From NCBI RefSeq assembly GCF_022669155.1, contig NZ_JALBVB010000052.1, positions 103,407 through 138,107 of the forward strand: DNA of 34,701 bases, read 5' to 3'. A program made the position numbers and the translations under genes. The notes beneath the pieces are model-generated. The model did not search any database. It was not told the DNA's origin and saw nothing but the letters and a program-made list of their open reading frames with translations. The DNA comes from Kineococcus sp. TRM81007. Lineage in GTDB: Bacteria; Actinomycetota; Actinomycetes; Actinomycetales; Kineococcaceae. Each line of letters opens with the position of its first letter. Positions within the stretch are counted from its first letter, which is position 1. Positions 9,653-33,532 of the stretch are shown piece by piece.

Positions 9653-9673
9653 GGGGAGCTGCACGACAGGATC

Positions 9674-9830: not shown

Positions 9831-9838
9831 CACCTCCC

Positions 9839-13509: not shown

Positions 13510-13544
13510 CGGCGCGTCCGTGTGCCCTCCCGGAAGGACCCGCC

Positions 13545-17109: not shown

Positions 17110-17178
17110 CCGCGCGGGTGCGTGCGGGGGCTGATCCTGTGACGTGAAGCACACCCTGCGGTGCTGTCCACGGCGTGG

Positions 17179-17200
17179 TCAGGGAAGGCTAAGCTTCCTG
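17179..17200. promoter_or_regulatory. Possible DtxR/IdeR iron box at the siderophore-uptake promoter
   Basis: The 19-mer at 17179-17197 matches 13 of 19 positions of the consensus TTAGGTTAGGCTAACCTAA, including AGGCTAA in full. It has dyad symmetry (GGAAG at 17183-17187, CTTCC at 17194-17198, and CAGG/CCTG at the ends). A TAAGCT hexamer (17190-17195) inside it could be the -10 box, so an iron-loaded repressor would block RNA polymerase directly. Confidence 0.5.
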
Positions 17201-17259
17201 GCATCGGGTCGCGCGGAACCGCGGGCCCCGCCCCTGCACCCTGCTCGAAAGGCGTTGCC

Positions 17260-18228: not shown

Positions 18229-18300
18229 GCACCCCCACCCGCCGGGCAGTCGCGTCCCGCACCCCTGCGTCGGGTCCCCCTGGCCGCGGGGATCGTCGTC

Positions 18301-19227
18301 GTGCTCGCCCTCGTCGCGCTGTCCCTGGCGGTGGGCGGGTACGACATCACCCTCGAGACGTTCCTGCACGACGAGAAGGCGCGCGAGATGTTCTTCATCA
18401 GCCGCGTCCCGCGCACCCTGGCCCTCGTGCTCGCCGCCGCCGCCATGGGCGTGTCCGGCGTCGTGATGCAGGTCCTCGTGCAGAACAAGTTCGTCGAGCC
18501 CACCACGACGGGGTCCAGCCAGTGGGCGGCCCTGGGGATCGTGGGGCTCGCCGTCGTGCACCCCGGCGCCCCCACGATCGTGCGCATGGTGGTGGCGAGC
18601 CTGCTCGCCCTCGTGGGCACCCTGGTGTTCCTCGGCGTCCTGCGGCGCGTCTCGCTGCGCTCCTCGGTCGTCGTGCCGCTGGTCGGCATCATGCTCGGGT
18701 CCGTCGTGGGCGCCGTCACCACCTACCTCGCCTCGGACAACGACCTGCTGCAGATGCTGGCCTCGTGGCGCTCGGGCGGTTTCAACGACATCGTGCGCGG
18801 CCGGTACGAACCGCTGTGGATCGTCGGTCTCGTCGTCGTCGCCGTGTACGTCACCGCTGACCGGTTCACCATCGCCGGCCTGGGGCGGGACGTGGCCACC
18901 AACCTCGGCCTGCACCACGGCCGCGTGGTGTTCACCGGCACCGCGATGGTGGCACTGGCCACCGGCGTGACGACCGTGGTCGTCGGCTTCGTGCCGTTCC
19001 TGGGTCTGGTCGTGCCCAACGTGGTCTCCCTGCTGCGCGGCGACGACGTGCGCCGCAACCTGCCCTGGGTGGTGCTGGCCAGCGTGGCCCTGATGGTGGT
19101 GTGCGACCTCGTCGGGCGCACCGTCGTCTTCCCGCTGGAGGTCCCCGCGTCCGTGGTGCTGGGAGCGGTGGGTGCCACGGCGTTCGTCGTGCTGGTCCTG
19201 CGCCGGAAGGGGTCGCTGCGTGGCTGA
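18301..19227 (+). CDS. Iron-siderophore ABC transporter permease 1 (YclN/FatD-like), start uncertain
   Basis: This FecCD-family inner-membrane permease of about 308 residues has about eight to nine hydrophobic helices. RVPRTLALVLAAAAMGVSG and QNKFVEPTTTGSSQWAALG match the YclN/FatD branch. The N-terminus is problematic. From GTG 18301 the first helix would be only about 12 residues long. The same frame upstream, back to the previous stop at 18226, continues the helix (RRVPLAAGIVVV) but has no ATG, GTG or TTG; CTG at 18265 would give an ideal start (MRRVPLAAG). The usual GTGA overlap codon at 18225 exists but is in another frame. The true start may therefore be CTG, or there is a frameshift. 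The coordinates given are the conservative ones. Confidence 0.85.
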   Translation: MLALVALSLAVGGYDITLETFLHDEKAREMFFISRVPRTLALVLAAAAMGVSGVVMQVLVQNKFVEPTTTGSSQWAALGIVGLAVVHPGAPTIVRMVVASLLALVGTLVFLGVLRRVSLRSSVVVPLVGIMLGSVVGAVTTYLASDNDLLQMLASWRSGGFNDIVRGRYEPLWIVGLVVVAVYVTADRFTIAGLGRDVATNLGLHHGRVVFTGTAMVALATGVTTVVVGFVPFLGLVVPNVVSLLRGDDVRRNLPWVVLASVALMVVCDLVGRTVVFPLEVPASVVLGAVGATAFVVLVLRRKGSLRG

Positions 19228-20287
19228 GGACACCACCGTGCGGGAGGCTCCCGCTGCGCACCTCCCGCGCACGGGGCAGCGTTCGCGCCCACCCGCCCGC
19301 GGCGGGGCCGGTGCACGAGCGCCGCGGCTCGCGCGGCCCGCGCGGCCCTGGCTGCGCGTGGCGGTCGTCGGCGTCCTGGCCGCCGTGGCCGTGCTGTGCT
19401 ACCTGTTCCTGTTCGTGCGCGGCTCCTTCGAGTTCGCGATCGAGCGCCGCCTGACGGCCGTGGGCGCCATGGTGCTCGTCGCGTTCACGCAGGGCGTGGC
19501 GACCCTGCTGTTCCAGACGGTCACCCAGAACCGGGTGCTCACCCCCTCCATCATGGGTTTCGACTCCGTCTACACCCTGGCCCAGACCGCGATGGTCGTC
19601 GCCTTCGGCGGCGGTGTGCTGGCCGCCACCGACGGCGTGGGCAAGGTCGTGGCCCAGACGCTGCTCATGGTGGCCTTCGCCACGTTCCTGTTCCGCTGGC
19701 TGTTCTCCGGCCGCCACGCCAACCTGCACGTGCTGCTGCTGGTCGGTGTCGCCATCGGCATGGCCTTCGACAGCGTCGCCACCTTCGGCCAGCGCGTCCT
19801 GGCGCCCGCCGACTACGACCTGCTGTCCGCGCGCATGTTCGGCCGGCTCACCGCGGCCGACCCGCAGGTGCTGCCGCTGGCGGCGGGGGTGTGCGTCCTC
19901 GTCGGCGTCGTCGTGGTGCGCCGGCACGCCCGCCTGGACGTCCTGCACCTGGGCCGCGACGTGGCCACCAACCTCGGCCTCGACCACCGCCGCGAGCTCA
20001 CCCTGGCGCTGGTGTGCGTGTCCGTGCTGGTGGCCATGTCCACCGCCGTCGTCGGGCCCCTGACGTTCTTCGGGTTCCTCGTCGCGGTCCTCACCCACCA
20101 GGTCGCCGGCACCCACCGGCACGCCGTGCTGCTGCCGATGTCGTTCCTGCTGGGCGTGCTCGTCCTGGTGGGCGGGCAGTTCGTCATGGAGCACGTCTTC
20201 TACGCCACCGGCATGCTCACCGTCGTCCTGGAGTTCGTCGGCGGCACCGTCTTCCTCGTCCTGCTGCTGCGGAAGGGCACCCTGTGA
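19220..20287 (+). CDS. Iron-siderophore ABC transporter permease 2 (YclO/FatC-like)
   Basis: The second FecCD-family permease has 355 residues, with a basic, Pro/Ala-rich cytoplasmic N-terminus of about 45 residues before the first helix (LRVAVVGVLAAVAVLCYLFL). FQTVTQNRVLTPSIMGFDS is the characteristic YclO/FatC segment, and LGRDVATNLGL is the ATPase-contacting loop shared with permease 1. GTG at 19220 overlaps the upstream stop by 8 nt, with GGAAGGGG 8 nt before it. It should form a heterodimeric channel with the preceding gene product. Confidence 0.92.
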   Translation: MAEDTTVREAPAAHLPRTGQRSRPPARGGAGARAPRLARPARPWLRVAVVGVLAAVAVLCYLFLFVRGSFEFAIERRLTAVGAMVLVAFTQGVATLLFQTVTQNRVLTPSIMGFDSVYTLAQTAMVVAFGGGVLAATDGVGKVVAQTLLMVAFATFLFRWLFSGRHANLHVLLLVGVAIGMAFDSVATFGQRVLAPADYDLLSARMFGRLTAADPQVLPLAAGVCVLVGVVVVRRHARLDVLHLGRDVATNLGLDHRRELTLALVCVSVLVAMSTAVVGPLTFFGFLVAVLTHQVAGTHRHAVLLPMSFLLGVLVLVGGQFVMEHVFYATGMLTVVLEFVGGTVFLVLLLRKGTL

Positions 20288-21066
20288 TCACCGTCGACGC
20301 CGTCACCAAGGCCTACGGCGACACCCCCGTCCTCGGCCCCGTCAGCGAGGTGCTGGCCGACCGCGGCATCACCTCCGTGATCGGGCCCAACGGCGCCGGC
20401 AAGTCCACCCTGCTCACCATCGCCGGGCGTCTGGCCGAACCGGACTCCGGCACGGTGCACGTGCACGTCGACGACGCCGCGGGCGCGGTGGGGCTGGACG
20501 TGCACCGCGCCCGCTCCGCCGACGTCGCCAAGCTCGTCGCCGTGCTGCGCCAGGAGAACCACTTCACCGCCCGCCTCACCGTGCGCGAGCTGGTCTCCTT
20601 CGGCCGCTTCCCGCACAGCCGCGGCCGGCTGACCCCCACCGACGTCGCCGCCGTCGACGAGGCGCTGGGGTTCCTGGACCTGACGGCCCTGCAGGGGCGC
20701 CACCTCGACGAGCTCTCCGGCGGGCAGCGCCAGCGCGCCTACGTCGCCATGGTCCTGGCGCAGGGCACCCGCCACGTCCTGCTCGACGAACCGCTGAACA
20801 ACCTCGACATCCGCCACGCGGTGCGGATGATGCGGCTGCTGCGCCGCGTCGCCGACGAGCTCGGCCGCGCCGTCGCGCTGGTCGTGCACGACGTGAACTT
20901 CGCCGCCGCCTGGTCCGACCGCATCGTCGCCGTGCGCGACGGTCGCGTCGTCGCCCAGGGCACCCCCGAGGAGGTCGTGCGCGAGGACGTGCTGCGCGAG
21001 GTGTTCGACACCCCGGTGCGCGTGCACGTGCTCGACGGGGTGCCCACGGCGGTGTACTTCCGCTGA
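20284..21066 (+). CDS. Iron-siderophore ABC transporter ATP-binding protein (YclP-like)
   Basis: The 260-residue ATPase has Walker A GPNGAGKST (about residues 37-45), Q-loop RQENHF, signature LSGGQRQRAYVAMVLAQ, Walker B VLLDEPLNNLD and H-loop VVHDVNFAAAWSD. The DEPLNNLDIRHAVRMM wording is typical of the YclP/FatE petrobactin-type ATPases rather than the FepC type. GTG overlaps the permease 2 stop by 4 nt. It ends the operon and is followed by a hairpin. Confidence 0.94.
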   Translation: MITVDAVTKAYGDTPVLGPVSEVLADRGITSVIGPNGAGKSTLLTIAGRLAEPDSGTVHVHVDDAAGAVGLDVHRARSADVAKLVAVLRQENHFTARLTVRELVSFGRFPHSRGRLTPTDVAAVDEALGFLDLTALQGRHLDELSGGQRQRAYVAMVLAQGTRHVLLDEPLNNLDIRHAVRMMRLLRRVADELGRAVALVVHDVNFAAAWSDRIVAVRDGRVVAQGTPEEVVREDVLREVFDTPVRVHVLDGVPTAVYFR

Positions 21067-21106: not shown

Positions 21107-22102
21107 TCAGCAGGAGGGGCGCTCCGGCTCGTCGCGGGCTGTGGTGGTGAACTCGCCCGCGAGCGCTACGGGTGCGCTGTCGACGAGGGCGACGTCCGCC
21201 ACCAGGAGCACGAACCAGCTGTGGGCGTCGACGCAGCCGCGCGCCACGGCGGGTCGAGAGCGTTCGCCCCTCCCGGGTCGCCGGTGGCGCGGACCGCCTC
21301 TGCGGCGCGCAGTGCTGCCACGCTCCTCGTCTTCCCGGGATCGGCAGCCTCAGGCAGGACCGCGGCGCACCGGTTCCCGGAGCCCGGCGGGACCGGGGCC
21401 GACCGGGCGGGGGCGTGGATGAGCACCCACTCGGCCAGCGCTGCCCGCGAACCGGTCACGTCGCGGGTGCGCCGGCTCGACGACTCGGTGCTGAACGGGG
21501 CCTCGGCCACCGATCCCACCGGCGCTCGACGGTGGTGACCGTGGCGCCGGTGAAGGTCGTTCGCACGCCCTGCGCGAAGGCCCGTCGCTGCCGGGGGGCG
21601 GACACGCTCGACGCCGGGGCGTCGGGGTGCTGGACGGGCAAGGCGTTCAGCGGGCTGAACGGGCCGTGCCCGAAGCAGGCGGACTCGATCCGCTCCGCCA
21701 GGAATTCCCCTCCTGCCGGGGAGGGGACGCGCAGACGCCGCCGGCGGACGCTGCTCGGCTGCCCGCGTCGCTGTGGCGACGGGCGAGCAGTTGCTCGTCC
21801 GCCGGGCGTGGAGCTCGACGACGTCGATGCAAACCGGCGGCGCGCGTGGACCCCGCGGTGTGCGAGTCGGTAGGGCCGATGCCGATGCCGATGCCGGTGA
21901 GGGAGGGGCCGAAGGACTCCGCACCGTGTGGACCTCGGGGAGGAGCTGTGCGGGTGGCGCAGGAGCCGGGGCCTGACCGGTTCGCGTGGAGCTGCGGCTC
22001 CGCCCCGGGAATCGTGAGCACGACCTGAGCTCGGTCGATGGCCAGAAGGCGAAACACCGCTGTTACGTCGTCGTCATTCCCAGAAAATGTGGTGTGTGAC
22101 AT
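21107..22102 (-). pseudogene. Decayed, unrecognised minus-strand gene
   Basis: This is the only stretch of about 1 kb without an intact gene before the catabolic operon. No single frame is convincing, but minus-strand pieces in different frames read like protein: a start-like MSHTTFSGNDDDVTAVFRLL at 22102; EFLAERIESACFGHGPFSPL around 21700-21640, continuing to FAQGVRTTFTGATVTTVERR; ALAEWVLIHAPARSAP near 21440; and HSWFVLLVADVALVDSAP, ending at a stop at 21107. A total of about 330 codons would suit a divergent regulator of the operon at 22136, but no helix-turn-helix or other known domain is visible. Alternatives are several unrelated fragments or non-coding DNA. Confidence 0.4.
21875..21896. 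repeat. Short tandem GCCGAT repeat
   Basis: GCCGAT occurs three times in direct succession (21875-21892), followed by GCCG. It lies inside the decayed stretch and has no evident function. Confidence 0.85.
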
Positions 22103-22118
22103 AGTACCGAAACGTCAC
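22077..22118 (+). promoter_or_regulatory. Candidate promoter and operator of the cyclic-amide operon
   Basis: TTCCCA (22077-22082) and CATAGT (22100-22105), each 4 of 6 to consensus, are spaced 17 bp apart in the most AT-rich part of the region. An inverted repeat GTGAC (22096-22100) / GTCAC (22114-22118) with a 13-bp gap spans the -10 box and the expected start site, as a repressor site would. The ribosome site GGAGGA (22127-22132) precedes the ATG at 22136. Confidence 0.45.
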
Positions 22119-22135: not shown

Positions 22136-23170
22136 ATGGAACGCAGCGTGAAGAAGTCCAGCCGTGCGACCCTCGTCGCCGCCGCGGTCAGCATCCTGGC
22201 CCTGCCGGCCTGCGGAGCAGCGGACGGCGCCGCCAGCGATGACGGGGGAGCGCTGAACATCGCCGTGCTCGCCTCCTCCAGCCAGAACGGCTACAACCAG
22301 GCCGTCTACGAAGGTGTGCGGAAGGCGGTGGAGGCGTCGGGCCAGGACGTCGAGCTCAAGCTGCTGGACGGGCAGTTCGACTCCAACACCCAGCTCTCGC
22401 AGATGCAGAACGTCACCAGCGGCGACGACTACGACGGAGTCGTCGTGGTGCCCAACGACGGTGTCAGCCTGGCCGCAGCCTTCCCGCTGTCCAGCGACGT
22501 GCCGGTGGTCACCGTCCTCAACCCCATCGGCCCGGACATCGACACCATGACGCCCCAGGTCGACGGCGTGGTCTCGACCGTGGCCGTCTCCCCGTCGGCT
22601 GCCGCCGAGAAGCAGGCCGAAGGGGTCCTGGAGCACTGCGCGGACATCGACCCCTGCAAGGTCGTCGAGCTCGTCGGCAACCTCTCCGCCACCCTCGACG
22701 TGGCGCGCAAGGACTCCTACGACGAGGTGCTGTCCACCGCCGCCAACATCGAGGTGGTCAGCGCCGTCGAAGGTCAGTACGACCGGGACACCTCGCTGAG
22801 CGCGATCAGCAACGTGCTGCAGGCGCACCCCGACATCGACGTCATCCTCTCCAACGCCGACCAGCAGACGTCCGGCGCGGTGATCGCCCTGCAGAACGCC
22901 GGGATCGACCCCGCCTCGCTGTACCTCACCGGTGGCGGTGGAACCGAGGACGCGGTGGCCGCGGTGCGCGCCGGGACCTGGAAGGCCGACTACATCAACT
23001 TCCCCGTCAGCATGGGCGAGGCGGCTGCCGAGCAGCTCCTGGCCGCGATCGCCGGTGAGGAGGTCACCGAGGTCGTCGACGCCGACGCGCTCGGTGGTGA
23101 TGTCGAGCCCTACGCCACGGCGGAGACCCTGGCGACGACCCCGGACTTCACCGGCGAGTGGAACGGCTGA
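22136..23170 (+). CDS. ABC transporter substrate-binding lipoprotein, RbsB-like (Peripla_BP_4)
   Basis: The 344-residue extracellular binding protein has signal peptide and lipobox L23-P-A-C26. The mature part has the ribose-type fold: LNIAVLASSSQNGYNQAVYEGVRKA at the first strand-helix, DYDGVVVVPNDG, then ATLDVARKDSYDEVL and the C-terminal VILSNADQQTSGAVIALQNAG block. The family binds pentoses, AI-2, polyols and, in some cases, nucleosides or purine-like heterocycles. With hydantoinase genes next door, a small cyclic amide or imide is a reasonable guess. The ATG has a strong GGAGGA site. It is the first gene of a seven-gene operon. Confidence 0.92.
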   Translation: MERSVKKSSRATLVAAAVSILALPACGAADGAASDDGGALNIAVLASSSQNGYNQAVYEGVRKAVEASGQDVELKLLDGQFDSNTQLSQMQNVTSGDDYDGVVVVPNDGVSLAAAFPLSSDVPVVTVLNPIGPDIDTMTPQVDGVVSTVAVSPSAAAEKQAEGVLEHCADIDPCKVVELVGNLSATLDVARKDSYDEVLSTAANIEVVSAVEGQYDRDTSLSAISNVLQAHPDIDVILSNADQQTSGAVIALQNAGIDPASLYLTGGGGTEDAVAAVRAGTWKADYINFPVSMGEAAAEQLLAAIAGEEVTEVVDADALGGDVEPYATAETLATTPDFTGEWNG

Positions 23171-23172
23171 GC

Positions 23173-24801
23173 GTGAGCGCCGACTCCGCTGCACCCGCTC
23201 AGAGCTCTCCGAGGCGCGCAGTCCTCGACCTGTCGGGCATCACCAAGCGCTTCGGAGGCACGCTCGCCCTCGACCGGGTGGACCTGACGGTCACCCCCGG
23301 CAGTGTGCACGCCCTGGTCGGGGAGAACGGAGCCGGCAAGTCCACCCTCGGCAAGATCGCCGCAGGCATCTACACCCCCGACGCCGGCGGGATCTCGGTG
23401 TCCGGTCGCTCCGTGGGGCGGTGGGACACCGTGCGCGCCCAGCGGCAGGGCATCGTGATGATCGCCCAGGAGTTGTCGCTGGTGCGCGACCTCACCGTCG
23501 CGCAGAACGTCTTCCTCGGCATCGAGGAGCACCGCGCCGGCATCCTGCGTCGCGACCAGCGGCGCAGGTTCGCGGCGCTCGACGAGGTCGCGCAGTTCGG
23601 TCTGGACCCCTCCGCCCGGCTGGGCGACCTGCGCATCGCCGATCAGCAGAAGGTCGAGATCCTCCGCGCCCTGGCACGGGACGCGAAGGTCATCGTGATG
23701 GACGAGCCCACCTCGTCCCTGACCGCGCACGAGACCCAGCGCCTGCACGAGGTCGTCCGCCGTCTGACGGCGCAAGGCCGCTCGGTCGTCTACGTGTCGC
23801 ACTTCCTGGAGTCCGTGCTGGAGGTCAGCGACACCGTGACCGTCATGCGCGACGGCAGGCGCATCCGCACCGGATCCGCCCGGGACGAGACCAAGCGGTC
23901 CCTGGTGGAGGCCATGCTGGGACGCGAACTGGCAGTCACCTTCCCTCCTCGACCGCCGGCGCCGGCAGCCGATGTCCAGCCGCTGCTGGTCGCGACCGAC
24001 ATGGCCAGTGACAACGGGGTCCGTTCAGCCACCCTCGCCGTCCGCCCCGGGGAGATCGTCGGTCTGCTGGGCCTCGTCGGCTCCGGGCGCACCGAGATCG
24101 CGCGGGCTCTGGTCGGCGTCGACCGGGTGACGGCGGGCACCGTCGTCCTGGACGGTCAGGGCCTGGGTCGCACGAGCCCTCGCCGCAGTCGCGACGCAGG
24201 TCTGGTGATGGTGCCCGAGGACCGCCACGGTCAGGGCCTGGTCCTGGCGCGCAGCATGAGCGAGAACATGACGCTGGCCTTCCTGGGGCGCTTCTCCCGG
24301 TGGGGCCTGGTGGACCGCCGGCGCGAACGGCGCCGCGTCGGTGAGCTCGTGGAGCAGTTGCAGGTCCGCCCGGCCCGGCCGGAGCTGCCCGTGCAGGGCT
24401 TCTCCGGAGGCAACCAGCAGAAGGCGCTCCTGGCGAAGTGGCTGGTGGGTGAGCCCCGCTTGGTGATCCTGGATGAGCCGACCCGCGGCGTGGACGTCGG
24501 TGCCAAGTTCGCCATCTACGAACTGATCGTCGCCCTGGCCCGCCGAGGAGTCGGCGTCCTGATCATCTCCTCGGAGCACGAGGAGGTGCTCGGCCTGGCG
24601 CACCGTGCTCACCTGGTCTGCGCAGGGCGGACCTTCGATGAGGTCGACCCCGCGCACCTGAGCCCGGAGGATCTCCTGCGCCGCCTGTTCGCAGCTCAGG
24701 ACGATGCCGCCGGCGAATCCGCGGACAGCGCCGCAGGAACGCACGACCCTGGTCTCGGCGTCGACGTGTCGACGTCCCACAGCGAGGAGCTCACGCGATG
24801 A
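23173..24801 (+). CDS. ABC importer ATPase with two fused domains, RbsA-like
   Basis: The 542-residue tandem ATPase belongs to the ribose/galactose class. Domain 1 has Walker A GENGAGKST (50-58, K56), signature-like LRIADQQKVEI and Walker B VIVMDEPTSSLT. Domain 2 has the usual degenerate P-loop GLVGSGRTEI (300-309, Arg in place of Lys), a good signature FSGGNQQKALLAKWL and Walker B LVILDEPTRGVDVG. This asymmetry is normal for RbsA/MglA. Start codons at 23158 and 23173 are both GTG; 23173 begins 2 nt after the lipoprotein stop and gives the expected short leader. The gene ends in an ATGA overlap with the permease gene. Confidence 0.93.
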   Translation: MSADSAAPAQSSPRRAVLDLSGITKRFGGTLALDRVDLTVTPGSVHALVGENGAGKSTLGKIAAGIYTPDAGGISVSGRSVGRWDTVRAQRQGIVMIAQELSLVRDLTVAQNVFLGIEEHRAGILRRDQRRRFAALDEVAQFGLDPSARLGDLRIADQQKVEILRALARDAKVIVMDEPTSSLTAHETQRLHEVVRRLTAQGRSVVYVSHFLESVLEVSDTVTVMRDGRRIRTGSARDETKRSLVEAMLGRELAVTFPPRPPAPAADVQPLLVATDMASDNGVRSATLAVRPGEIVGLLGLVGSGRTEIARALVGVDRVTAGTVVLDGQGLGRTSPRRSRDAGLVMVPEDRHGQGLVLARSMSENMTLAFLGRFSRWGLVDRRRERRRVGELVEQLQVRPARPELPVQGFSGGNQQKALLAKWLVGEPRLVILDEPTRGVDVGAKFAIYELIVALARRGVGVLIISSEHEEVLGLAHRAHLVCAGRTFDEVDPAHLSPEDLLRRLFAAQDDAAGESADSAAGTHDPGLGVDVSTSHSEELTR

Positions 24802-25793
24802 CCATCACCGAAACGGCGACCCCAGCGCGACCGAGCCCGTCGTCGACGCCATCGAGCGGCGCCCGGGTCCTGGCGTTCGCCCGGGACTACGCGGCGCTCG
24901 TCCTGCTCGTCGTCATCTTCGTCACGCTGTCGATCATCTCGTCCTCGTTCCTGTCGTTCACCAACATCATGAACATCCTCAACCAGAACACCCCGCTGGC
25001 CATCATCGCCGTCGCGGGGACGTTCGTGATCATCTCCGGTGCGTTCGACCTGTCGACCGCCGCGATGTACGCCGTGGCCAGCGTCGCCGTGGCCTGGATG
25101 GCGACTCACACCGACAACGCGGCCCTGGCTCTCCTGATCGCCCCCGTGCTCGGCGTCGTGATGGGGATCCTGAACGGCTTGGCGGTGACCAAGCTGCACG
25201 TCCACTCCTTCCTCGCCACCCTCGCCTCCAGCCTCGTGTACAAGGCGGTGGCCGTCCTGGTCACCGGCGGCTCGCTGATCACCGTCACCACCGAAGGCTT
25301 CAGCGACCTGGGCCGCGGCAGGGTCGGGGGTGTCTTCTACGCCGTCATCGTCCTGATCGGCATCGTCGCTCTCGGTTCCCTGCTGCTGCACAGCAGCGTC
25401 TTCGGCCGCCACGTCTTCGCCGTCGGCGGCAACTCCGACGCCGCCCACCTGTCGGGTGTCCGAGTCGACAGCACACGCGTCACCGTCTTCGCCCTCTCGG
25501 GCCTGGCCGTCGGCATCGCCGCTGCCATCGGGGTCTCGCGCATCGCCTCAGGTCAACCGCAGGCGGGAGCCGGGCTGGAACTTCAGGCCATCGCCGCCGT
25601 CATCCTCGGTGGCACGAGCATCTACGGCGGTGTCGGAGCGGTCTGGCGCTCCATCGTCGGGGTGTTCCTCATCGCCCTCATCGGCAACGGCTTCGACATC
25701 CTCAGCGTCAACCCGCAGATGAAGGACCTGGTGACCGGCGTCATCATCCTGGCGGCCGTCGCGCTGGCCGCCGCCGACCGCCGGCGCCGCTGA
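24798..25793 (+). CDS. ABC importer permease, RbsC-like
   Basis: The 331-residue BPD_transp_2 family permease has about eight to ten membrane helices after a Ser/Pro/Thr-rich N-terminus of about 25 residues. Diagnostic features are NIMNILNQNTPLAIIAVAGT, ISGAFDLS (the family's G-x-DLS motif) and AVILGGTSIYGGVGAVWRSI near the C-terminus, the coupling-helix region. The ATG overlaps the ATPase stop. It probably forms a homodimer with the RbsA-like protein. The gene is followed by a 94-bp spacer with two hairpins before hyuA. Confidence 0.93.
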   Translation: MTITETATPARPSPSSTPSSGARVLAFARDYAALVLLVVIFVTLSIISSSFLSFTNIMNILNQNTPLAIIAVAGTFVIISGAFDLSTAAMYAVASVAVAWMATHTDNAALALLIAPVLGVVMGILNGLAVTKLHVHSFLATLASSLVYKAVAVLVTGGSLITVTTEGFSDLGRGRVGGVFYAVIVLIGIVALGSLLLHSSVFGRHVFAVGGNSDAAHLSGVRVDSTRVTVFALSGLAVGIAAAIGVSRIASGQPQAGAGLELQAIAAVILGGTSIYGGVGAVWRSIVGVFLIALIGNGFDILSVNPQMKDLVTGVIILAAVALAAADRRRR

Positions 25794-25800
25794 CGAGGCC

Positions 25801-25833
25801 AGGTGCTCCCGCACCTCCGTGGCGTCTCGCCAC
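25801..25833 (+). promoter_or_regulatory. Two adjacent perfect hairpins between transporter and enzyme genes
   Basis: AGGTGC-tccc-GCACCT (25801-25816) and GTGGCG-tct-CGCCAC (25819-25833) are two perfect 6-bp stems only 2 bp apart. They sit 7 bp past the permease stop in the largest gap of the operon. They could attenuate transcription or protect the upstream mRNA end, so that transporter and enzymes are made in different amounts. Confidence 0.55.
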
Positions 25834-25887
25834 CGACCACCCGCACTCGAGCCGCATCCGGCCACGCCACGAAAGGCACCGCACACC

Positions 25888-27993
25888 ATGGCAGAAGTCC
25901 GCATCGCCGTCGACGTCGGAGGCACCTTCACCGACGTGGTGAAGCTGGTCCCCGACACCGGTGAACTGCGATTCGAGAAGGTGGCGACCACCCCCTCCGA
26001 GCCCACCCGCGGGGTTCTCGCCGCCTTCGACGCCGCGGAAGCGCCGCTGGGCGAGGTCAGCACCTTCAACCACGGGTCGACCCTGGGCCTGAACTCCCTG
26101 CTGACCCGCACCGGTGCGCGGGTGGCCGTCGTCGCGACCGCGGGCTTCCGTGACGTCTACCTGCTGGGGCGCACCGACCGCAAGGCGATGTACGACCTCA
26201 CCTACCGCAAGCCCGAGCCGCTGCTGCGCCGGCGCGACACCTTCGAGGTGGTCGAGCGGTGCACCTTCGACGGGGAGGTGCTCACCGCCTTCGACGAGCG
26301 GGACGCCCGCGCCGTCGCCCGCCGGATCGCCGAGGGCGGCTACGACGCCGTCGCCGTGGCCTTCCTGCACGCCTACGCCAACCCCGAGCACGAGCGGGCC
26401 ATGCGCCGGGTCCTGCAGGAGGTGGCGCCGCAGGTCGAGGTCACCCTCTCCCACGAGCTCTCCCGCGAGTACCGCGAGTACGAGCGGACCTCCACCGCCG
26501 TCCTGGACGCCTACATCAAGCCCGTCATGCGGACCTACCTGACGGCCTTGGGTCACGAGCTGGCCGACGGCGGCTTCACCGGCCGCTTCCTGATGTCCCG
26601 ATCGGGCGGCGGTGCCATGACCGCCTCGGCCGCGGCGCAGCAGCCGGTCAACCTCATCCTGTCCGGCCCCGCAGGCGGGGTCGTGGGGGCAGCGGCCCTC
26701 TCCAAGCTCATCGGCTACGAGAACCTCATCACCATCGACATGGGAGGCACCAGTCTGGATGCCTCCCTGGTCCTCGACGGCGAGCCGGTCCTGCACGCCG
26801 GCGCGCAGTTCGAGGGGATGCCCATCAACACCACCTCGCTGAACATCCACACCATCGGGGCCGGCGGCGGCTCGGTGGCCCACCTCGACGCCGCCGGCGC
26901 CCTGCAGGTCGGCCCGCGCAGCGCCGGTGCCGCACCGGGGCCGGCCGCCTACGGTCGCGGGGGCACCGAACCGACCTTCACCGACGCCGCCCTCGTGCTC
27001 GGTTACATGGGCAGCGACTCGCCCCTGGGTGGCTCCCTGCAACTGGACCACGACCTCGCCAGCAAGGCGCTGCAGCCGATCGCGCACCAGCTGGACATGA
27101 GCCTGCCCGCTCTGGCCCGCGGCATCGTGCGCATCTCCACCACGAAGATCGTCGGTGCGGTGCGCGCCATCACCGTCGAACTGGGCCGCGACCCCAAGGA
27201 CTTCGCCCTGCTGTCCTTCGGCGGCGGTGGCGGACTCGTCGCCGTCGACGTGGCGCGGGAGCTGAACATCCCCACCGTGGTCGTCCCCCCCGGCCAGGGC
27301 GCCTTCTCCGCGCTGGGCATGCTCATGGCCGACGTCCAGCACGACTACTCCCGCACCAGTGTCGTCGCGCTGGACGCGACGAGCCCGGCTGACCTCGAGG
27401 TCGCCTTCCAGCAGATGGAGGACCAGGCGCGGGTCACGCTGACCGAGGAGGGCTTCGCCGTGGGCGACCAGGAGATGCACCGCTCCGTGGACGTGCGCTA
27501 CGTCGGTCAAGAGCACGCGGCGACCGTGCCGTACCCCGGTGAGGGTGACGGCGGCGTCCTCACGAGCATCACCCGCGACTTCCGCGCGTTGCACGAGCGC
27601 CTGTACGGACACGTCATGGACGAACCGGCTGAGATCGCCACCCTGCGGCTGCGGGCGGTCGGCGTCGTCGACAAGCCGAAGCTGCCCGCGTGCCCGGTGC
27701 GCACGCAGGGTGCGCCGACGCCCTTCGGCCGGCGGCCCGTCTTCCTGTCCGGTGACGAGGGTGAGTACTACGACCTGTACACCCGCGAAGCGCTGCAGGG
27801 AGGGGACGTCGTGCACGGCCCGGCGGTCATCGCCGAGCACACCGCCACCACGGTGCTGCACCGCGGCGATCGCCTCGAGGTCGCCGCCCTCGGTGAGCTC
27901 GTCATCCACGTGCGCGTCGATGACACCGGTACCAGCACCGACGCTGCCACCAGGGTCGAGCGAGCGAACACCGACAGGAAGGACGCCCAGTGA
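25888..27993 (+). CDS. hyuA: Hydantoinase/oxoprolinase family protein, subunit A (ATPase-like)
   Basis: The 701-residue protein is the HyuA half of the ATP-dependent N-methylhydantoinase / 5-oxoprolinase / acetone carboxylase family. The N-terminal actin-like ATPase motif is VDVGGTFTDVV (residues 8-18), HyuA-type THG..G recognition is seen as FNHGSTLGLNSLL, and the second phosphate motif is TIDMGGTSLDASL (about 286-298). GAGGGSVAHLDAAGAL and GPRSAGAAPGPAAYGRGG are the characteristic HyuA signature. ATG 25888 is the only plausible start, with AAAGG about 11 nt upstream. hyuB overlaps by 4 nt, so the two should form a complex that opens a cyclic amide at ATP cost. Confidence 0.93.
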   Translation: MAEVRIAVDVGGTFTDVVKLVPDTGELRFEKVATTPSEPTRGVLAAFDAAEAPLGEVSTFNHGSTLGLNSLLTRTGARVAVVATAGFRDVYLLGRTDRKAMYDLTYRKPEPLLRRRDTFEVVERCTFDGEVLTAFDERDARAVARRIAEGGYDAVAVAFLHAYANPEHERAMRRVLQEVAPQVEVTLSHELSREYREYERTSTAVLDAYIKPVMRTYLTALGHELADGGFTGRFLMSRSGGGAMTASAAAQQPVNLILSGPAGGVVGAAALSKLIGYENLITIDMGGTSLDASLVLDGEPVLHAGAQFEGMPINTTSLNIHTIGAGGGSVAHLDAAGALQVGPRSAGAAPGPAAYGRGGTEPTFTDAALVLGYMGSDSPLGGSLQLDHDLASKALQPIAHQLDMSLPALARGIVRISTTKIVGAVRAITVELGRDPKDFALLSFGGGGGLVAVDVARELNIPTVVVPPGQGAFSALGMLMADVQHDYSRTSVVALDATSPADLEVAFQQMEDQARVTLTEEGFAVGDQEMHRSVDVRYVGQEHAATVPYPGEGDGGVLTSITRDFRALHERLYGHVMDEPAEIATLRLRAVGVVDKPKLPACPVRTQGAPTPFGRRPVFLSGDEGEYYDLYTREALQGGDVVHGPAVIAEHTATTVLHRGDRLEVAALGELVIHVRVDDTGTSTDAATRVERANTDRKDAQ

Positions 27994-29717
27994 CCGACGC
28001 CATCACCCTCGAGGTCATCCGCCACGCCCTGCTGGCCGCCGCCGAAGAGATGGCCCGAAACCTGTGCCGCACGGCCTACAACACCGTCGTCTACGAGATC
28101 CACGACTACGGCATCGGACTGCACGACGCCAACGGTGACGTCGTCGCCGATGCCCCCGGCATCGCCATCTTCACCCGCGGCAACGACCACGGCATCCACC
28201 GGGCCATCGAGCACCTCGGCCGCGACGCGATGGCCCCCGGTGACGTCTTCGTCCTGAACTACCCCTACTGGTCCTCCGCGCACACCCTCGATCCGCTGGT
28301 CTTCGCGCCCATCCACGTCGACGGTCAGCTGATCGGCTTCTCCTCCTGCCGCATCCACGTGCTGGACCTGAAGCAGAAGAACCCCGGCTACGTCCTGGAC
28401 TCCACCGACATGTACCAGGAAGGTCTCTTCTTCCCCGTCTCACGGCTGTACCGCGCCGGTGAGCCGAACCAGGAGATCTTCGACATCGTCCGGTTCAACT
28501 CGCGCATGCCCGAACGCACCATCGGGGACCTGCAGGCCCAGGTCTCGGCGTGCGTCACCGGCGTGCGCCGCACCCAGGACCTGGCGGCCAAGCACGGCGC
28601 CGACGTCCTGCTGCAGGCCATGGACTCCATCAACGCCCACGGCGAGCGCCTGGCCCGCCTCGCGCTGGCCGAACTGCCCCGAGGAACGTGGACGGCCACC
28701 GACATCGTCGACTCCGACGGGGTCGACCTGGACCGCGAGATCCTCATGAAGGCCACCGTCACCATCAGCGACGACGAGTTCGTCGTCGACTGGACGGGCA
28801 GCGAGAAGGACGTCCGCGGCCCCATCAACCTGCCCCTCGGGCAGACGATGGCCCTGTGCAGCCTGATCTTCAAGGCGCTCACCACCCCTGATTCCCCCGT
28901 CGTGGCCGGGAACTTCGCGCCTCTGCGCGTGGTCACCGAGGCCGGCAGCGTCATGCACGCCGTCCCGCCCATGCCGACGTTCACGCTGTGGACCGGCATC
29001 ATCGCCGGCGAGGTGATCCTCAAGGCGCTGGCGCAGGGCATGCCCGAGCGGGTACCGGCCAGCTCCGGCGGCGACGTCTCCTCGATGATGGGTCTGGGCG
29101 TCAACCCCCGCACCGGTGAGCACTGGCTGGAGGCGACCAACGAGGCCGTGGGCTTCGGCGGCCACGCCGGCGGCGACGGCGAAGACGGGATCATGCACCT
29201 GTCCGAGCCGGGCTGCCGCAACAACCCGGTGGAGGTGCTGGAGACGAAGTCGCCCATGGTGATCGACAGCTACGGCTACGTCCCGGACAGCGGTGGCGCC
29301 GGTCTGCACCGCGGTGGAGTGGGCGTGCAGCGCACCTACCGGTTCACCGCACCCTCCACGGGCATCTGCCTGGTCTACAAGACGAAGTCCGCACCGTGGC
29401 CGATCGCCGGCGGGCAGCCGGCCCGACCGGCGAGGATCGTCCTGAACCCCGGCACGCAGCACGAGGTCACCACGCGCGGCAGCTACAACCAGCTCGAGGC
29501 CGGTGAGGTCCTGGCCAACATCACCGGCGGCGGTGGTGGCTACGGCGACGCCTTCCAGCGCCCGGCCGAGGTGGTGTTGCGCGACGTCGTCGACGGCTTC
29601 GTCTCGCTGGAGGCGGCACGCACCGCTTACGGCGTCGTCCTCGTCCCCGCACCCGGCGCTGAGGGGGGCCTGGCCGTCGACGAGGCGCAGACCCTGGCTG
29701 CGCGCGCGGCGGCATGA
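27990..29717 (+). CDS. hyuB: Hydantoinase/oxoprolinase family protein, subunit B
   Basis: The 575-residue HyuB partner is of normal length for the family. It starts TDAITLEVIRHALLAAAEEM, the usual HyuB opening, followed by RTAYNTVVYEIHDYGIGLHD, PGDVFVLNYPYWSSAHTLD, a metal-site-like segment, and DWTGSEKDVRGPINLP. Near the end are SGGAGLHRGGVGVQRTYRF and NITGGGGGYGDAFQRP, both hallmark glycine-rich motifs. GTG overlaps hyuA by 4 nt behind GGAAGGAC. Together with HyuA it would hydrolyse a lactam or imide ring to an open amino or carbamoyl acid. The substrate is not decided by sequence. Confidence 0.94.
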   Translation: MTDAITLEVIRHALLAAAEEMARNLCRTAYNTVVYEIHDYGIGLHDANGDVVADAPGIAIFTRGNDHGIHRAIEHLGRDAMAPGDVFVLNYPYWSSAHTLDPLVFAPIHVDGQLIGFSSCRIHVLDLKQKNPGYVLDSTDMYQEGLFFPVSRLYRAGEPNQEIFDIVRFNSRMPERTIGDLQAQVSACVTGVRRTQDLAAKHGADVLLQAMDSINAHGERLARLALAELPRGTWTATDIVDSDGVDLDREILMKATVTISDDEFVVDWTGSEKDVRGPINLPLGQTMALCSLIFKALTTPDSPVVAGNFAPLRVVTEAGSVMHAVPPMPTFTLWTGIIAGEVILKALAQGMPERVPASSGGDVSSMMGLGVNPRTGEHWLEATNEAVGFGGHAGGDGEDGIMHLSEPGCRNNPVEVLETKSPMVIDSYGYVPDSGGAGLHRGGVGVQRTYRFTAPSTGICLVYKTKSAPWPIAGGQPARPARIVLNPGTQHEVTTRGSYNQLEAGEVLANITGGGGGYGDAFQRPAEVVLRDVVDGFVSLEAARTAYGVVLVPAPGAEGGLAVDEAQTLAARAAA

Positions 29718-30949
29718 GCCCCGACGAGAGCCTCGGCGCTGACGGGCGGTTCGCCCACCTCATCATCACGGATGCCCTGGTGCACGACGGTGGCCTCGGC
29801 GAGCCGTTCGAGGCCGATGTCGTGGTCTCCGCAGGACGGATCGTCGCCGTGGGCGCCGGCGCGGGCCGGGACCGCAGCGCGGCTCAGGTGCTGCCGGCGC
29901 AGGGCAGGTCCTTGCTGCCGGGCCTCATCGACGCGCACTTCCACGCCTACGCCACGACGCTGGACGCCTGGCAGCTGGAGACCCAGCGCCTCAGCTACGC
30001 CGCCCTGGTGGGGGCGCAGCGCCTCGGGCGGGCGCTGCGCCGGGGATTCACCACGGTGCGCGACGTCGCCGGCGGCGACGAGGGCCTGGAGCGAGCCTGC
30101 CGGGAGGGCCTGCTACCCGCCCCCCGCTACCTGTGGACCGGCCCGGCGATGAGCCAGACCGGCGGCCACGGTGACCCGCGACCCGGGGAGGTGAGCGTGT
30201 GCTTCCACGGCGGCCCCATGAACGAGGTGGTCGACGGTGTGGAGGCGCTGCGCGTGGCCACCCGCGACCGCTTCCGCCGGGGGGCGCACGCCGTGAAGAT
30301 CATGACGTCGGGTGGTGTCGTCTCACCCACGGACCCGATCCGCGTGCCGCAGTACTCCGCCGAGGAGGTCGCCGCCGTGTGCGGCGAGGCGCGTCGACGG
30401 GGCAGCTACGTCGCAGCGCACGCGTACTCACCCGAAGCGGTGCTGCACTCGGTGCGCTCCGGGGTGCGCTCGATCGAGCACGGCAACCTGCTGGACGCCG
30501 AAGCGGCCAGCGCCATGGCCACTGCCGGCGCGTTCCTGGTGCCCACGCTGGCGGCCTACGACGCCATGGCGCGCCGGCACGCCGAGGTTGGCCTCAGCCC
30601 CGTCCAGCGCGCCAAGAACACCGAAGTCCTCGAGGCGGGGAAGGCGGCCGTCGACACCGCGCGCAGCGCTGGAGTGCCGATCGGGTTCGGCTCGGACCTG
30701 ATGGCGCAGCTGGAAGACGACCAGCTCCGAGGCTTGCAGCTGCAGGCGGAGGTGCTGGGCGTCGACCAGACGATCCACTCGGCGACGCGGGTCAACGCAC
30801 GTCTGCTGGAGCGGGCCGACCTGGGCACCATCGCGGCCGGCGCCGTGGCGGACCTGCTGCTGCTCGACGGGCGCCTGCCGCAGGAGGGATCACTGCTGTG
30901 GAACGGGCAGCGGCCGAGGACCGTGGTGCAGGGCGGACGCGTCCTGTGA
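29714..30949 (+). CDS. Metal-dependent amidohydrolase (imidazolonepropionase/prolidase-like)
   Basis: The 411-residue amidohydrolase-superfamily enzyme resembles the COG1228 group (Xaa-Pro dipeptidase-like Sgx9260 members and imidazolonepropionase). The metal ligands are all visible: H75-F-H77 in IDAHFHAY, K195 in VKIMTSGG as the likely carboxylated bridging lysine, H236 in HAYS, H256 in IEHGN, and D328 in GSDL. ATG overlaps the hyuB stop by 4 nt. Its position after hyuAB suggests it cleaves a second amide, N-acyl or cyclic bond of the same substrate. Confidence 0.93.
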   Translation: MSPDESLGADGRFAHLIITDALVHDGGLGEPFEADVVVSAGRIVAVGAGAGRDRSAAQVLPAQGRSLLPGLIDAHFHAYATTLDAWQLETQRLSYAALVGAQRLGRALRRGFTTVRDVAGGDEGLERACREGLLPAPRYLWTGPAMSQTGGHGDPRPGEVSVCFHGGPMNEVVDGVEALRVATRDRFRRGAHAVKIMTSGGVVSPTDPIRVPQYSAEEVAAVCGEARRRGSYVAAHAYSPEAVLHSVRSGVRSIEHGNLLDAEAASAMATAGAFLVPTLAAYDAMARRHAEVGLSPVQRAKNTEVLEAGKAAVDTARSAGVPIGFGSDLMAQLEDDQLRGLQLQAEVLGVDQTIHSATRVNARLLERADLGTIAAGAVADLLLLDGRLPQEGSLLWNGQRPRTVVQGGRVL

Positions 30950-31863
30950 CGCATCGCCACAGCCGCCTGACCCTGTCCTGCGTCGTGCTCCCCGACCAGG
31001 CGCCGGAGGACTTCGTCCGTCAGGTGCGCGACGCCGAAGACGCCGGCGTACGCACGGTGTGGACGTACGACCACCTCTCCTGGAGGGCCTTGCGCGACGG
31101 GCCCTGGCACGCGACGGTGCCGCTGCTCGCCGCTGCGGCCACGGCCACCCGCACCGTGCGCCTCGGGCCACAGGTCGCCACCCCCAACTTCCGCCACCCG
31201 GTGCCGTTCGCCAAGGAGATCATGACGCTGGACCACCTCAGCGGTGGTCGGATCGATCTCGGCATCGGCATCGGCGCCGGTGCCCAGGACTCCGACGCCC
31301 GGGTCCTGGGGCAAGCCCCCCTCTCCCTGCGTGAACGGGCGGACCGCTTCGAGGAGTGGACCGCTCTGCTGACCGCGTGCTTCTCGCAGGAGCGCACGGA
31401 TCACCAGGGCACGTACTTCACGGCAGACGGTGCGCGAACCATCCCCGGCTGCCTGCAGCGACCCCGCGTACCCCTCACCCTGGCGGCCACCGGGCCACGC
31501 GGAATGCGCTTGGCCGCACGGTACGCCGACTCCTGGTTGACGTACGGCCCCTACGACGCCCGGCCTCGCCACGAGGAGTGGCTGGATGCCCTGGAGCGGC
31601 AGGTCCGGGCCTTCGACGACATCCGGGCACGAACTGCCCCCGAACGTCGTGTGCGCCGCATCGTGCAGGTGGCGCTCGACAGGATCGACCTGTTCGCTTC
31701 TGCGCACGCATACCACCGCACGTGTGAGGCGCTGGCTGCAGCGGGGTTCGATGAGATCTCCGTGCACTGGCCACGCGTGAGCGGCCAAGGCGTTCCGGCG
31801 GAACGCCTGGACGACGTCCTGAGTGCGCACTCACTACCGGCCCCCGCGGCGAACCAGGGCTGA
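30946..31863 (+). CDS. LLM class flavin-dependent (FMN or F420) oxidoreductase
   Basis: The 305-residue luciferase-like TIM-barrel protein has the characteristic blocks DAEDAGVRTVWTYDHLSW, TRTVRLGPQVATPNFRHP, and KEIMTLDHLSGGRIDLGIGIGAG, then GPRGMRLAARYADSWLTYG. The family includes F420-dependent reductases and FMN monooxygenases such as RutA, which opens the uracil ring. Whether it oxidises or reduces the operon substrate is not evident. GTG overlaps the amidohydrolase stop by 4 nt. It ends the operon, followed by a strong hairpin. Confidence 0.92.
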   Translation: MTHRHSRLTLSCVVLPDQAPEDFVRQVRDAEDAGVRTVWTYDHLSWRALRDGPWHATVPLLAAAATATRTVRLGPQVATPNFRHPVPFAKEIMTLDHLSGGRIDLGIGIGAGAQDSDARVLGQAPLSLRERADRFEEWTALLTACFSQERTDHQGTYFTADGARTIPGCLQRPRVPLTLAATGPRGMRLAARYADSWLTYGPYDARPRHEEWLDALERQVRAFDDIRARTAPERRVRRIVQVALDRIDLFASAHAYHRTCEALAAAGFDEISVHWPRVSGQGVPAERLDDVLSAHSLPAPAANQG

Positions 31864-32503: not shown

Positions 32504-33532
32504 GTGCGGGGAACGGCCTGGGAACTGCTCACGGTGCACCCGCACGACGCGGCCCACTGGGGTGCGCTGCGCGCAGCGTTGGGGTTGGCGGTACCGGCGC
32601 TGCTGCTGCTGACGACCGGGAACCTGGAGCACGCGCTGCCCGTGACGTTCGGCGCGCTCGCCGGGGTCTACGGCCGCCACGCCCGCTACCGCGCCCGGTT
32701 GCGCGTGCAGGCCGGTGCGGGTGCGCTCCTGGTGGGCTGCGTCGCCGCGGGGACCTCCGCCGCTGCCCTGGGGGTTGCCGCCCTGGCGCTGCTCGTCCCG
32801 GCGCTGGCCAGCGGTGCGGGCTTCCTCGCCGCGCGCCGCGGGGGCTGGCTGCCACCGGGCTCGCTGTTCGCCACCTTCGCCGCAGGAGCGTGCGCGGCGC
32901 ACCCGCGGTCGTGGGCGGACGTCGGTGCAGCGGTCGCGCTGAGCGCCGCAGCTGCGGCCTTCGCGCTGCTGCTGGGACAGGCGGGGGCGCTGCTGCCCGC
33001 CGGGCGGCGGCGGCCGAAGCGGGACGTGCCCGCCGGGCCGTCCGTGGGTGAGCAGGTGCGCGACCCCGCGGCGCGTGGCGACCTGCTCGCGCACGTCCTG
33101 GCGCCGCTGCTGGCAGGGGCACTGGCGACGGCCGCCGGGGGAGGGCACCCGTACTGGGCGATGGTCGCGGCCGTCGCGCCGCTGTCCGTGGCCGGTGCCC
33201 GCGACCGCCTCGCCCGCTCGGTGCACCGCGTGCTGGGGACGCTGGGCGGGGTGGCGCTGGCCTTCGCCCTGCTGTCGCTGGAACCGTCCCCGCTGGTCAC
33301 GATCGTGCTCGCCGCGCTGTTCCAGGCGTGGGCGGAACTGCTCGTGACCCGGCACTACGCCCTGGCGGTCGTGGGCATCACCCCGCTGGCGCTGCTCATG
33401 GTCCACCTCGCGGTCCCCGTCGACCCGGGCAGCGTGGCGGCCGACCGGGCCGTGCAGACGGTCCTCGGCTCCGCGGTGGCGGTGGCGCTGGTCCTGCTCG
33501 CCCCCCGCGGGTCCGCCCCCGCTCGGCGCTGA
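32504..33532 (+). CDS. FUSC-like membrane protein (aromatic acid exporter family)
   Basis: The 342-residue integral membrane protein has two similar hydrophobic halves of about five helices each (about residues 22-160 and 195-335), joined by a basic segment (AGRRRPKRDVPAGPS). GHPYWAMVAAVAPLS and RVLGTLGGVALAFALL in the second half, and ALPVTFGALAGVYGR in the first, follow the FUSC/YccS pattern, in which a conserved R.LGT..G region flanks the fourth helix. Relatives export aromatic acids or are uncharacterised. GTG 32504 has GGAGG only 3 nt upstream, a tight spacing. The gene stands alone, with a strong terminator after it and a transposase remnant before it. Confidence 0.82.
   Translation: MRGTAWELLTVHPHDAAHWGALRAALGLAVPALLLLTTGNLEHALPVTFGALAGVYGRHARYRARLRVQAGAGALLVGCVAAGTSAAALGVAALALLVPALASGAGFLAARRGGWLPPGSLFATFAAGACAAHPRSWADVGAAVALSAAAAAFALLLGQAGALLPAGRRRPKRDVPAGPSVGEQVRDPAARGDLLAHVLAPLLAGALATAAGGGHPYWAMVAAVAPLSVAGARDRLARSVHRVLGTLGGVALAFALLSLEPSPLVTIVLAALFQAWAELLVTRHYALAVVGITPLALLMVHLAVPVDPGSVAADRAVQTVLGSAVAVALVLLAPRGSAPARR

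What the first reader, a model, noticed from the sequence alone, without database searches (positions are those of the whole stretch)
22136..31863. Undescribed-looking operon: RbsABC-type importer with HyuAB, amidohydrolase and LLM flavin enzyme
Seven co-directional genes, mostly overlapping, join a sugar-class importer to an ATP-dependent ring opener (HyuAB), a carboxylated-lysine amidohydrolase and a luciferase-like oxidoreductase. This set predicts import and stepwise opening of a cyclic amide, imide or N-heterocycle as a nitrogen or carbon source. It does not match the complete creatinine, hydantoin, uracil (Rut) or oxoproline pathways that I know. A seeming drop in GC, the decayed gene on one side and the IS110 remnant on the other suggest it was acquired.
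Basis: partly seen in the sequence, partly recalled or inferred. Interest (0 to 1): 0.75.

Follow-up and report, generated by a model that had tools for sequence, protein, structure and literature searches.

The report
Hydroxyproline-linked cyclic peptide uptake operon
A seven-gene bacterial operon that looked like a generic ring-opening pathway appears, from its control sequence and its relatives, to take up and break down a ring-closed hydroxyproline compound, most likely a cyclic dipeptide such as those formed from collagen.

Summary

Best reading: import of a ring-closed Hyp compound, most likely a diketopiperazine cyclo(Xaa-Hyp). HyuAB opens the secondary amide with ATP, giving Xaa-Hyp; the prolidase-like enzyme releases Hyp. 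The Hyp link is strong (about 0.85, my judgement); the substrate is inferred. Pyroglutamyl-Hyp and a Hyp hydantoin remain open. 63 of 80 loci lack the Hyp set nearby, so the core enzymes may also serve other substrates. The LLM enzyme's role is unknown.

The parts
22096..22106 (-). HypR-type operator TACTATGTCAC in the promoter of the first gene
   Evidence: only site within 1 mismatch of TRCMATGTCAC in the window; one of 3 TRCNATGTCAC sites in the genome; shares GTGTGACATNGTAC with the genome's own Hyp-operon promoter
22136..23170 (+). substrate-binding protein (lipoprotein-like, Peripla_BP_4, RbsB-like)
23158..24801 (+). double-cassette ATPase (RbsA/AraG class)
24798..25793 (+). permease (BPD_transp_2, AraH/RbsC class)
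25888..27993 (+). HyuA: ATP-binding subunit of an ATP-dependent cyclic-amide hydrolase (ORF opens at 25819)
   Evidence: motifs DVGGTFTD, DMGGT, GAAPGP present
27990..29717 (+). HyuB: metal-binding hydrolytic subunit
   Evidence: Asp39, His98, Asp101, His123 align with the CapB metal ligands
29714..30949 (+). prolidase-like amidohydrolase (predicted Xaa-Hyp/Xaa-Pro dipeptidase)
30946..31863 (+). LLM-class flavin or F420 oxidoreductase, accessory, role unknown
   Evidence: found in 11 of 80 relatives

Best explanation
The operon is a HypR-controlled uptake and degradation route for a hydroxyproline compound whose amide is closed in a ring, most likely a 2,5-diketopiperazine cyclo(Xaa-Hyp). The ABC importer brings it in. 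HyuA activates the secondary amide (Hyp C=O to Xaa NH) with ATP and HyuB hydrolyses it, giving the linear dipeptide Xaa-Hyp. The amidohydrolase, a Xaa-Pro-dipeptidase homologue, cuts the remaining imide bond to Xaa and Hyp. Hyp is then taken by the separate Hyp operon of the same genome (epimerase, D-Hyp dehydrogenase, deaminase, 2-oxoglutarate-semialdehyde dehydrogenase) to 2-oxoglutarate. Shown by computation: gene content, family motifs, operator match, co-location with Hyp genes in relatives, presence of the Hyp operon in the genome. Inferred: HypR binding, the substrate, the order of steps, the role of the LLM enzyme.
Against: No substrate was tested; nothing computed separates a diketopiperazine from other ring-closed N-acyl-Hyp compounds. 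63 of 80 loci show fewer than 3 Hyp enzymes nearby (25 of the 80 loci are under 20 kb). Of the 29 loci with the window-type binding protein, 17 lack the Hyp set and 12 show neither the set nor an operator before the importer, 9 of them Microbacterium or Leucobacter. One of the three nearest named relatives (L032) has no Hyp enzyme nearby. 39 of 81 loci carry an S-methyl-thiohydantoin-desulfurase-like gene, so the core may act on other substrates there. Of the 17 Hyp-positive loci, 10 have no site within 1 mismatch at the start of a pathway gene. I saw the window's operator by eye before running, and chose the widened genome pattern after that. The window operon and the Hyp operon are on different contigs. 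The binding protein belongs to a sugar-binding class. The LLM enzyme is unexplained. Of four plasmid regions opened, one (L138) shows no proline gene or prolidase and one (L136) the amidohydrolase but no proline dehydrogenase.
Confidence: 0.54

Rival explanations
1. Pyroglutamyl-hydroxyproline (or pyroglutamyl-proline) is the substrate: HyuAB opens the pyroglutamyl lactam as a 5-oxoprolinase would, and the amidohydrolase cuts the Glu-Hyp or pGlu-Hyp imide bond.
For: Same link to Hyp; HyuAB belongs to the 5-oxoprolinase/hydantoinase family and the second enzyme is prolidase-like. It fits the plasmid parallel equally well.
Against: No pyroglutamate-specific gene was seen to recur among the families that I annotated (not all were). 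HyuA and HyuB score best in the PDB with N-methylhydantoinase and with 6yra, the caprolactamase entry, an enzyme without 5-oxoprolinase activity; no authentic 5-oxoprolinase structure was among the matches.
Confidence: 0.15
2. The substrate is the bicyclic hydantoin of hydroxyproline; HyuAB gives N-carbamoyl-Hyp and the amidohydrolase removes the carbamoyl group.
For: Nearest solved HyuAB relative is N-methylhydantoinase; many relatives carry S-Me-thiohydantoin-desulfurase-like genes; the plasmid clusters have Asp/Glu/hydantoin racemase-family genes; related prolidases also hydrolyse N-acyl-prolines (recalled).
Against: An M24 Xaa-Pro peptidase, unrelated to the amidohydrolase, takes its place on pGEOTH01, which points to a dipeptide product; no carbamoylase was seen among the annotated recurring families.
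Confidence: 0.08
3. Linear Xaa-Hyp or N-acyl-Hyp is the real nutrient; HyuAB handles a side product or another ring, so ring opening is not the entry step.
For: Prolidase-like enzyme and Hyp genes alone suffice for linear peptides.
Against: The amidohydrolase is found in 66 of the 81 loci that were picked by HyuB, mostly next to it, which implies a joint role.
Confidence: 0.12
4. As the first reader proposed in general form: a cyclic amide, imide or N-heterocycle unrelated to Hyp (hydantoin, lactam, creatinine, dihydropyrimidine).
For: Family membership of HyuAB and LLM; many loci have no Hyp genes nearby.
Against: Operator and co-location results; prolidase identity of the amidohydrolase.
Confidence: 0.08

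Closest known systems
HypR regulon / L-hydroxyproline operon of Streptomyces coelicolor (SCO6289-SCO6294)
   Same: Operator one mismatch from the published hypR-promoter site; the same Hyp enzymes and a GntR regulator next to them in relatives and in the own genome
   Different: The paper's regulon table has no HyuAB, amidohydrolase or RbsABC-type importer, and 'hydantoin' and 'amidohydrolase' do not occur in its text (PMC6608401: abstract, passages and section 20 read)
Caprolactamase CapAB and N-methylhydantoinase (HyuAB-type ATP-dependent cyclic-amide hydrolases)
   Same: HyuA ATP motifs and HyuB Asp-His-Asp-His metal tetrad kept
   Different: Far below the CapA/CapB equivalog cut-offs (480 and 222 of 1000 bits); different operon and control
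Cog1228 prolidases Sgx9260 (PDB 3feq/3n2c, 3mkv; the name Sgx9260 is recalled)
   Same: Same fold, about 40% identity over the chain, catalytic residues kept
   Different: Below the curated cut-off of the NCBIfam Xaa-Pro dipeptidase model (194 of 500 bits); activity untested; Hyp preference is inferred
Proline/hydroxyproline cluster on plasmid pGEOTH01 of Parageobacillus thermoglucosidasius C56-YS93
   Same: HyuA-HyuB with a Xaa-Pro peptidase and proline-ring catabolism; PMC4593210 already suggests in one passage a cluster for proline and hydroxyproline use with four oxoprolinases and a hydantoin racemase
   Different: HyuB only 35% identical, peptidase of another family (M24), other transporters, proline dehydrogenase instead of the Hyp pathway in the stretch seen

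Membership tests
HyuAB ATP-dependent cyclic-amide hydrolases | Hydant_A_N, Hydantoinase_A and Hydantoinase_B domains above gathering score | tested here: met
HyuAB ATP-dependent cyclic-amide hydrolases | ATP motifs in HyuA; Asp-His-Asp-His metal ligands in HyuB | tested here: met
   motifs in HyuA and HyuB Asp39, His98, Asp101, His123 (ligands named in PMC8453981, passages)
HyuAB ATP-dependent cyclic-amide hydrolases | ATP-dependent ring opening | not testable with these tools
   needs an enzyme assay
Caprolactamase CapAB | NCBIfam equivalog cut-off (1000 bits each) | tested here: not met
   480.3 and 222 bits
Cog1228 Xaa-Pro dipeptidases (3feq/3n2c type) | fold and metal/catalytic residues HxH, Lys, His, His, Asp | tested here: met
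Cog1228 Xaa-Pro dipeptidases (3feq/3n2c type) | NCBIfam NF051886 Xaa-Pro dipeptidase cut-off | tested here: not met
   194.4 of 500 bits
Cog1228 Xaa-Pro dipeptidases (3feq/3n2c type) | cleavage of Xaa-Pro or Xaa-Hyp | not testable with these tools
   needs an enzyme assay
HypR regulon | HypR operator in the promoter | tested here: met
   22096-22106, one mismatch to the published hypR-promoter site
HypR regulon | HypR-type GntR regulator in the genome | tested here: inconclusive
   a GntR protein at L122:10721-11386 closes the own Hyp cluster, 60% to the GntR of L032; SCO6294 itself was not compared
HypR regulon | binding and regulation | not testable with these tools
   needs gel shift or reporter
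Hyp catabolic pathway in the same genome | epimerase, D-Hyp dehydrogenase, deaminase, KGSA dehydrogenase genes | tested here: met
   all at L122 = G000:C54:128000-147500
RbsABC-class sugar importers | domain set | tested here: met
RbsABC-class sugar importers | sugar specificity | tested here: inconclusive
   no equivalog cut-off reached; at the alignment positions of the ribose contacts Asn190, Asp215, Gln235 (numbers recalled) the window protein has Ala, Gly, Asn
TIGR03560 F420-dependent LLM subfamily | curated cut-off | tested here: not met
   129.6 of 231.4 bits

The most novel reading that the evidence does not exclude
A HyuAB subfamily that is an ATP-dependent diketopiperazine hydrolase, working in series with a Xaa-Hyp dipeptidase under HypR control: a dedicated bacterial pathway for collagen-derived cyclic dipeptides, spread across Actinomycetota, with a proline counterpart in other bacteria and an LLM enzyme that reduces or oxidises modified rings before opening.
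Probability: 0.44. Interest if true: 0.8.

Novelty: new variant of a known kind. Interest (0 to 1): 0.6.

Why it matters
Cyclic dipeptides are widespread and resist peptidases. [quoted passage not shown] two recombinant D-hydantoinases cleaved none of nine diketopiperazines, and whether that enzyme class can do it was left open (PMC3852281, abstract and section 22 read). This operon is a concrete, testable candidate: two enzymes in the chemically required order, an importer and a known regulator. It would also give a function to a HyuAB subfamily in many actinomycetes that domain searches name only hydantoinase/oxoprolinase.

Tried and rejected
Generic hydantoin, creatinine, uracil or caprolactam pathway: CapAB cut-offs not reached; RutA appears only as a weak PDB match of the LLM protein; no neighbours of such pathways were noticed among the families annotated (most small clusters were not annotated).

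Sugar uptake: the binding protein is RbsB-like (best fold matches about 24% identical), but no sugar equivalog cut-off was reached and three ribose-contact positions differ.

Third operator site in the genome (C39:130968): it lies between ORFs that read like cheB and cheR (translations) and was treated as chance.

Literature. Searches cover only the held open-access library, and for 48, 49, 68, 69 and 82 only part of the matching papers was listed. PMC6061476 says in one passage that genes annotated as 5-oxoprolinase might be cyclic dipeptide hydrolases. PMC8546597, PMC11321411 and PMC7431475 (passages) hold nothing on it. Other papers: PMC6608401 abstract, passages, section 20; PMC3852281 abstract, section 22; PMC8453981 passages; PMC6213548 search listing only. 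Prolidase substrate profiles and ribose-contact numbers are recalled.

Limits. Loci come from one scan with patterns from the window's HyuB (80 best of 126 relatives), which favours close relatives. Gene families came from my own script, with some wrong ORF starts and spurious antisense ORFs; the counts used come from tblastn, where aldehyde-dehydrogenase and DapA-type hits could include unrelated members. The genome search scored at most 6 or 3 candidates a genome, so paralogue counts are lower bounds. mis-cut the upstream region of loci whose binding-protein gene starts at the locus end; redid it without L099, L100, L101 and L104.
Full report
Observation. The seven genes exist at the stated coordinates, on one strand and with mostly 4- to 13-nt overlaps. 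Third-position GC is 0.85-0.93 in the operon against 0.95-0.99 in ten genes of the left flank. An IS110-type fragment lies to the right; the left 'decayed gene' stays unidentified. The window is G000:C51:103407-138107 of a 4.22-Mb, 60-contig genome. Of the 10 other genomes of the genus in the order set, none has an orthologous HyuB (one has a 30% paralogue) and none a strong proline-racemase match (three have 20-22-bit matches).

Relatives. A scan with HyuB gave 80 loci, 59-85% identical, nearly all Actinomycetota by record title. tblastn over these 80 and the window (81 in all) found HyuA in 79, the prolidase-like amidohydrolase in 66, an importer ATPase in 64 and the LLM protein in 12. The nearest named relatives (Streptomyces, L032, L034, L046) have the window's gene order.

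Hydroxyproline genes. Clustering of neighbouring ORFs brought out families whose representatives Pfam and NCBIfam place as proline racemase/4-Hyp epimerase, DAO-type dehydrogenase, a Pyr_redox/BFD subunit, a DHDPS-type deaminase and an aldehyde dehydrogenase. These correspond to the Hyp pathway described for S. coelicolor and P. aeruginosa (PMC6608401, section 20). Three or more of the five lie beside HyuAB in 17 of 80 loci, 14 of the 55 loci that are at least 20 kb long, 12 of the 29 with the window-type binding protein (window included) and 5 of the other 52. In L034 and L046 four of them sit directly upstream of the binding-protein gene on the same strand; L032 has none. The window has none, but its genome holds the set with a GntR regulator at G000:C54 (L122).

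Controls for co-location. In 198 genomes of the order, 6 have orthologous HyuB (60% or more) and all 6 a strong racemase match, against 43 of 198 overall (46 by the call's own cut-off; Fisher 7.9e-5; four of the six share a genus, so the test overstates independence). Three of the 6 have it within 15 kb; none of 72 listed paralogous HyuB places outside those islands does. In 394 genomes of the class, 4 have the orthologue and all 4 the racemase (108 of 394 overall); in G215 and G382 it is about 11 kb away, in G000 and G523 on another contig.

Operator. HypR of S. coelicolor recognises TACAATGTCAC in its own promoter, consensus CTNTGC(A/C)ATGTCAC (PMC6608401, abstract and passages). The window has one site within one mismatch of TRCMATGTCAC: TACTATGTCAC at 22096-22106, about 30 bp before the first start codon. 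I had noticed it by eye before that scan, and widened the pattern to TRCNATGTCAC for the genome search afterwards; so the tests that were open when made are those on the own Hyp operon and on the relatives. In the genome the widened pattern occurs 3 times (reversed control 0): this site, the start of the own Hyp operon (TACAATGTCAC) and a junction between ORFs that read like cheB and cheR. The two promoter sites share GTGTGACATNGTAC. In relatives, 8 of 29 upstream regions of window-type binding-protein genes (window included) carry a site and 0 of 28 of the other binding-protein genes; 0 of 300 permuted motifs reach 8. Nine exact sites occur in the 80 loci: before binding-protein genes (L037, L041, L061, L071), before LLM-hyuA (L038), before hyuA (L068), before GntR or Hyp genes (L067, L068), and before a proline-racemase-family gene (L085). 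So the operator stands before this system in three different gene orders. Against it, 10 of the 17 Hyp-positive loci show no site within one mismatch at the start of a pathway gene.

Parallel case, found while checking. A passage in PMC4593210 led to plasmid pGEOTH01, where a distant HyuB (35%) is followed by a cupin, an M24 Xaa-Pro peptidase, P5C dehydrogenase and proline dehydrogenase. On pYJN5-3 a distant HyuB (34%) is followed by an amidohydrolase 57% identical to the window's and by PutA. On Rue61a p232 the same amidohydrolase follows, with an M9-collagenase N-terminal domain about 3 kb beyond, but no proline dehydrogenase in the stretch; on the Natrononativus plasmid no such gene is annotated. 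I opened these four of 766 matching records because of the paper, the amidohydrolase hits, or top rank. An unrelated Xaa-Pro peptidase in the same place suggests that HyuAB delivers a Xaa-Pro-type dipeptide.

Mechanism. Opening the secondary amide of cyclo(Xaa-Hyp) gives exactly Xaa-Hyp, the kind of bond a prolidase cuts, and the released Hyp feeds the HypR pathway. This order is chemical inference. cyclo(Pro-Hyp), reported in human blood after collagen intake (PMC6213548, listing only), has no secondary amide and would be a poor substrate on this mechanism. pGlu-Hyp fits nearly as well; a Hyp hydantoin less so.

Against. 63 of 80 loci lack the Hyp set nearby. 39 of 81 carry an S-methyl-thiohydantoin-desulfurase-like gene, and 27 a PucR-type regulator, often with another importer in opposite orientation; there the core may serve another substrate, or Hyp genes may lie elsewhere. 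Twelve of the 29 loci with the window-type binding protein show neither the Hyp set nor an operator before the importer (L032, L069, L076, L078, L079, L081, L082, L084, L085, L093, L105, L108); of these L032 has a HypR-type GntR gene, L093 a ProC, and L078, L081 and L085 a proline-racemase-family hit.

Verdict. The link to hydroxyproline is well supported (about 0.85 in my judgement); the diketopiperazine substrate is the best single guess (0.54). HyuAB enzymes, prolidases and the Hyp pathway are known; a loose link between oxoprolinase genes and hydroxyproline has been suggested once in print that I saw (PMC4593210), and their union under HypR was not seen in the searches listed under Tried and rejected.

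Noticed in passing
L122 (G000:C54:128000-147500): The genome's own Hyp operon is followed on the same strand by an oligopeptide-type ABC transporter (binding protein 8676-10373, permease 7725-8522, read from translations), a likely route for linear Hyp peptides.
   Followed up: partly
L035, L036, L039, L043, L045, L047-L049, L054-L056, L058, L060 and others: A second architecture: HyuAB-amidohydrolase divergent from another RbsABC-type importer with an S-Me-thiohydantoin-desulfurase-like protein, a HyuA-N-terminal-like protein and a PucR-type regulator.
   Followed up: partly
L135, L136, L137 (plasmids pGEOTH01, p232, pYJN5-3): Distant HyuAB clusters with an Asp/Glu/hydantoin racemase-family gene, an MFS transporter, DUF917 and HyuA-N-like proteins, and proline-related peptidases or dehydrogenases: a likely proline counterpart.
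   Followed up: partly
L110:3169-3522 and 27 other loci: A small ABM-domain protein of about 117 residues recurs beside the importer or HyuA in 28 of 81 loci; function unknown.
   Followed up: no
L085:14693: An exact HypR-type site lies directly before a proline-racemase-family gene in Leucobacter sp. Ag1, whose locus otherwise lacks the Hyp set.
   Followed up: partly
L040, L042, L059, L092, L093; L040, L042, L055, L074, L097, L109, L111: Pyrroline-5-carboxylate reductase (5 loci) and ornithine-cyclodeaminase/pyrroline-2-carboxylate-reductase-like genes (7 loci) sit near HyuAB, further proline-ring enzymes.
   Followed up: partly
window 1390-9652: Pyrimidine operon pyrB-pyrC-carA-carB-pyrF, read from translations; unrelated to the finding.
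   Followed up: no
window 13470-16151: Large secreted nuclease-like protein ending in glycine-aspartate-rich repeats of RTX type, read from translation.
   Followed up: no
window 17161-21066: Siderophore-type iron ABC importer (binding protein, two permeases, ATPase), read from translations.
   Followed up: no
window 32504-33532: FUSC-family membrane protein (PF13515) right of the IS110 fragment.
   Followed up: no
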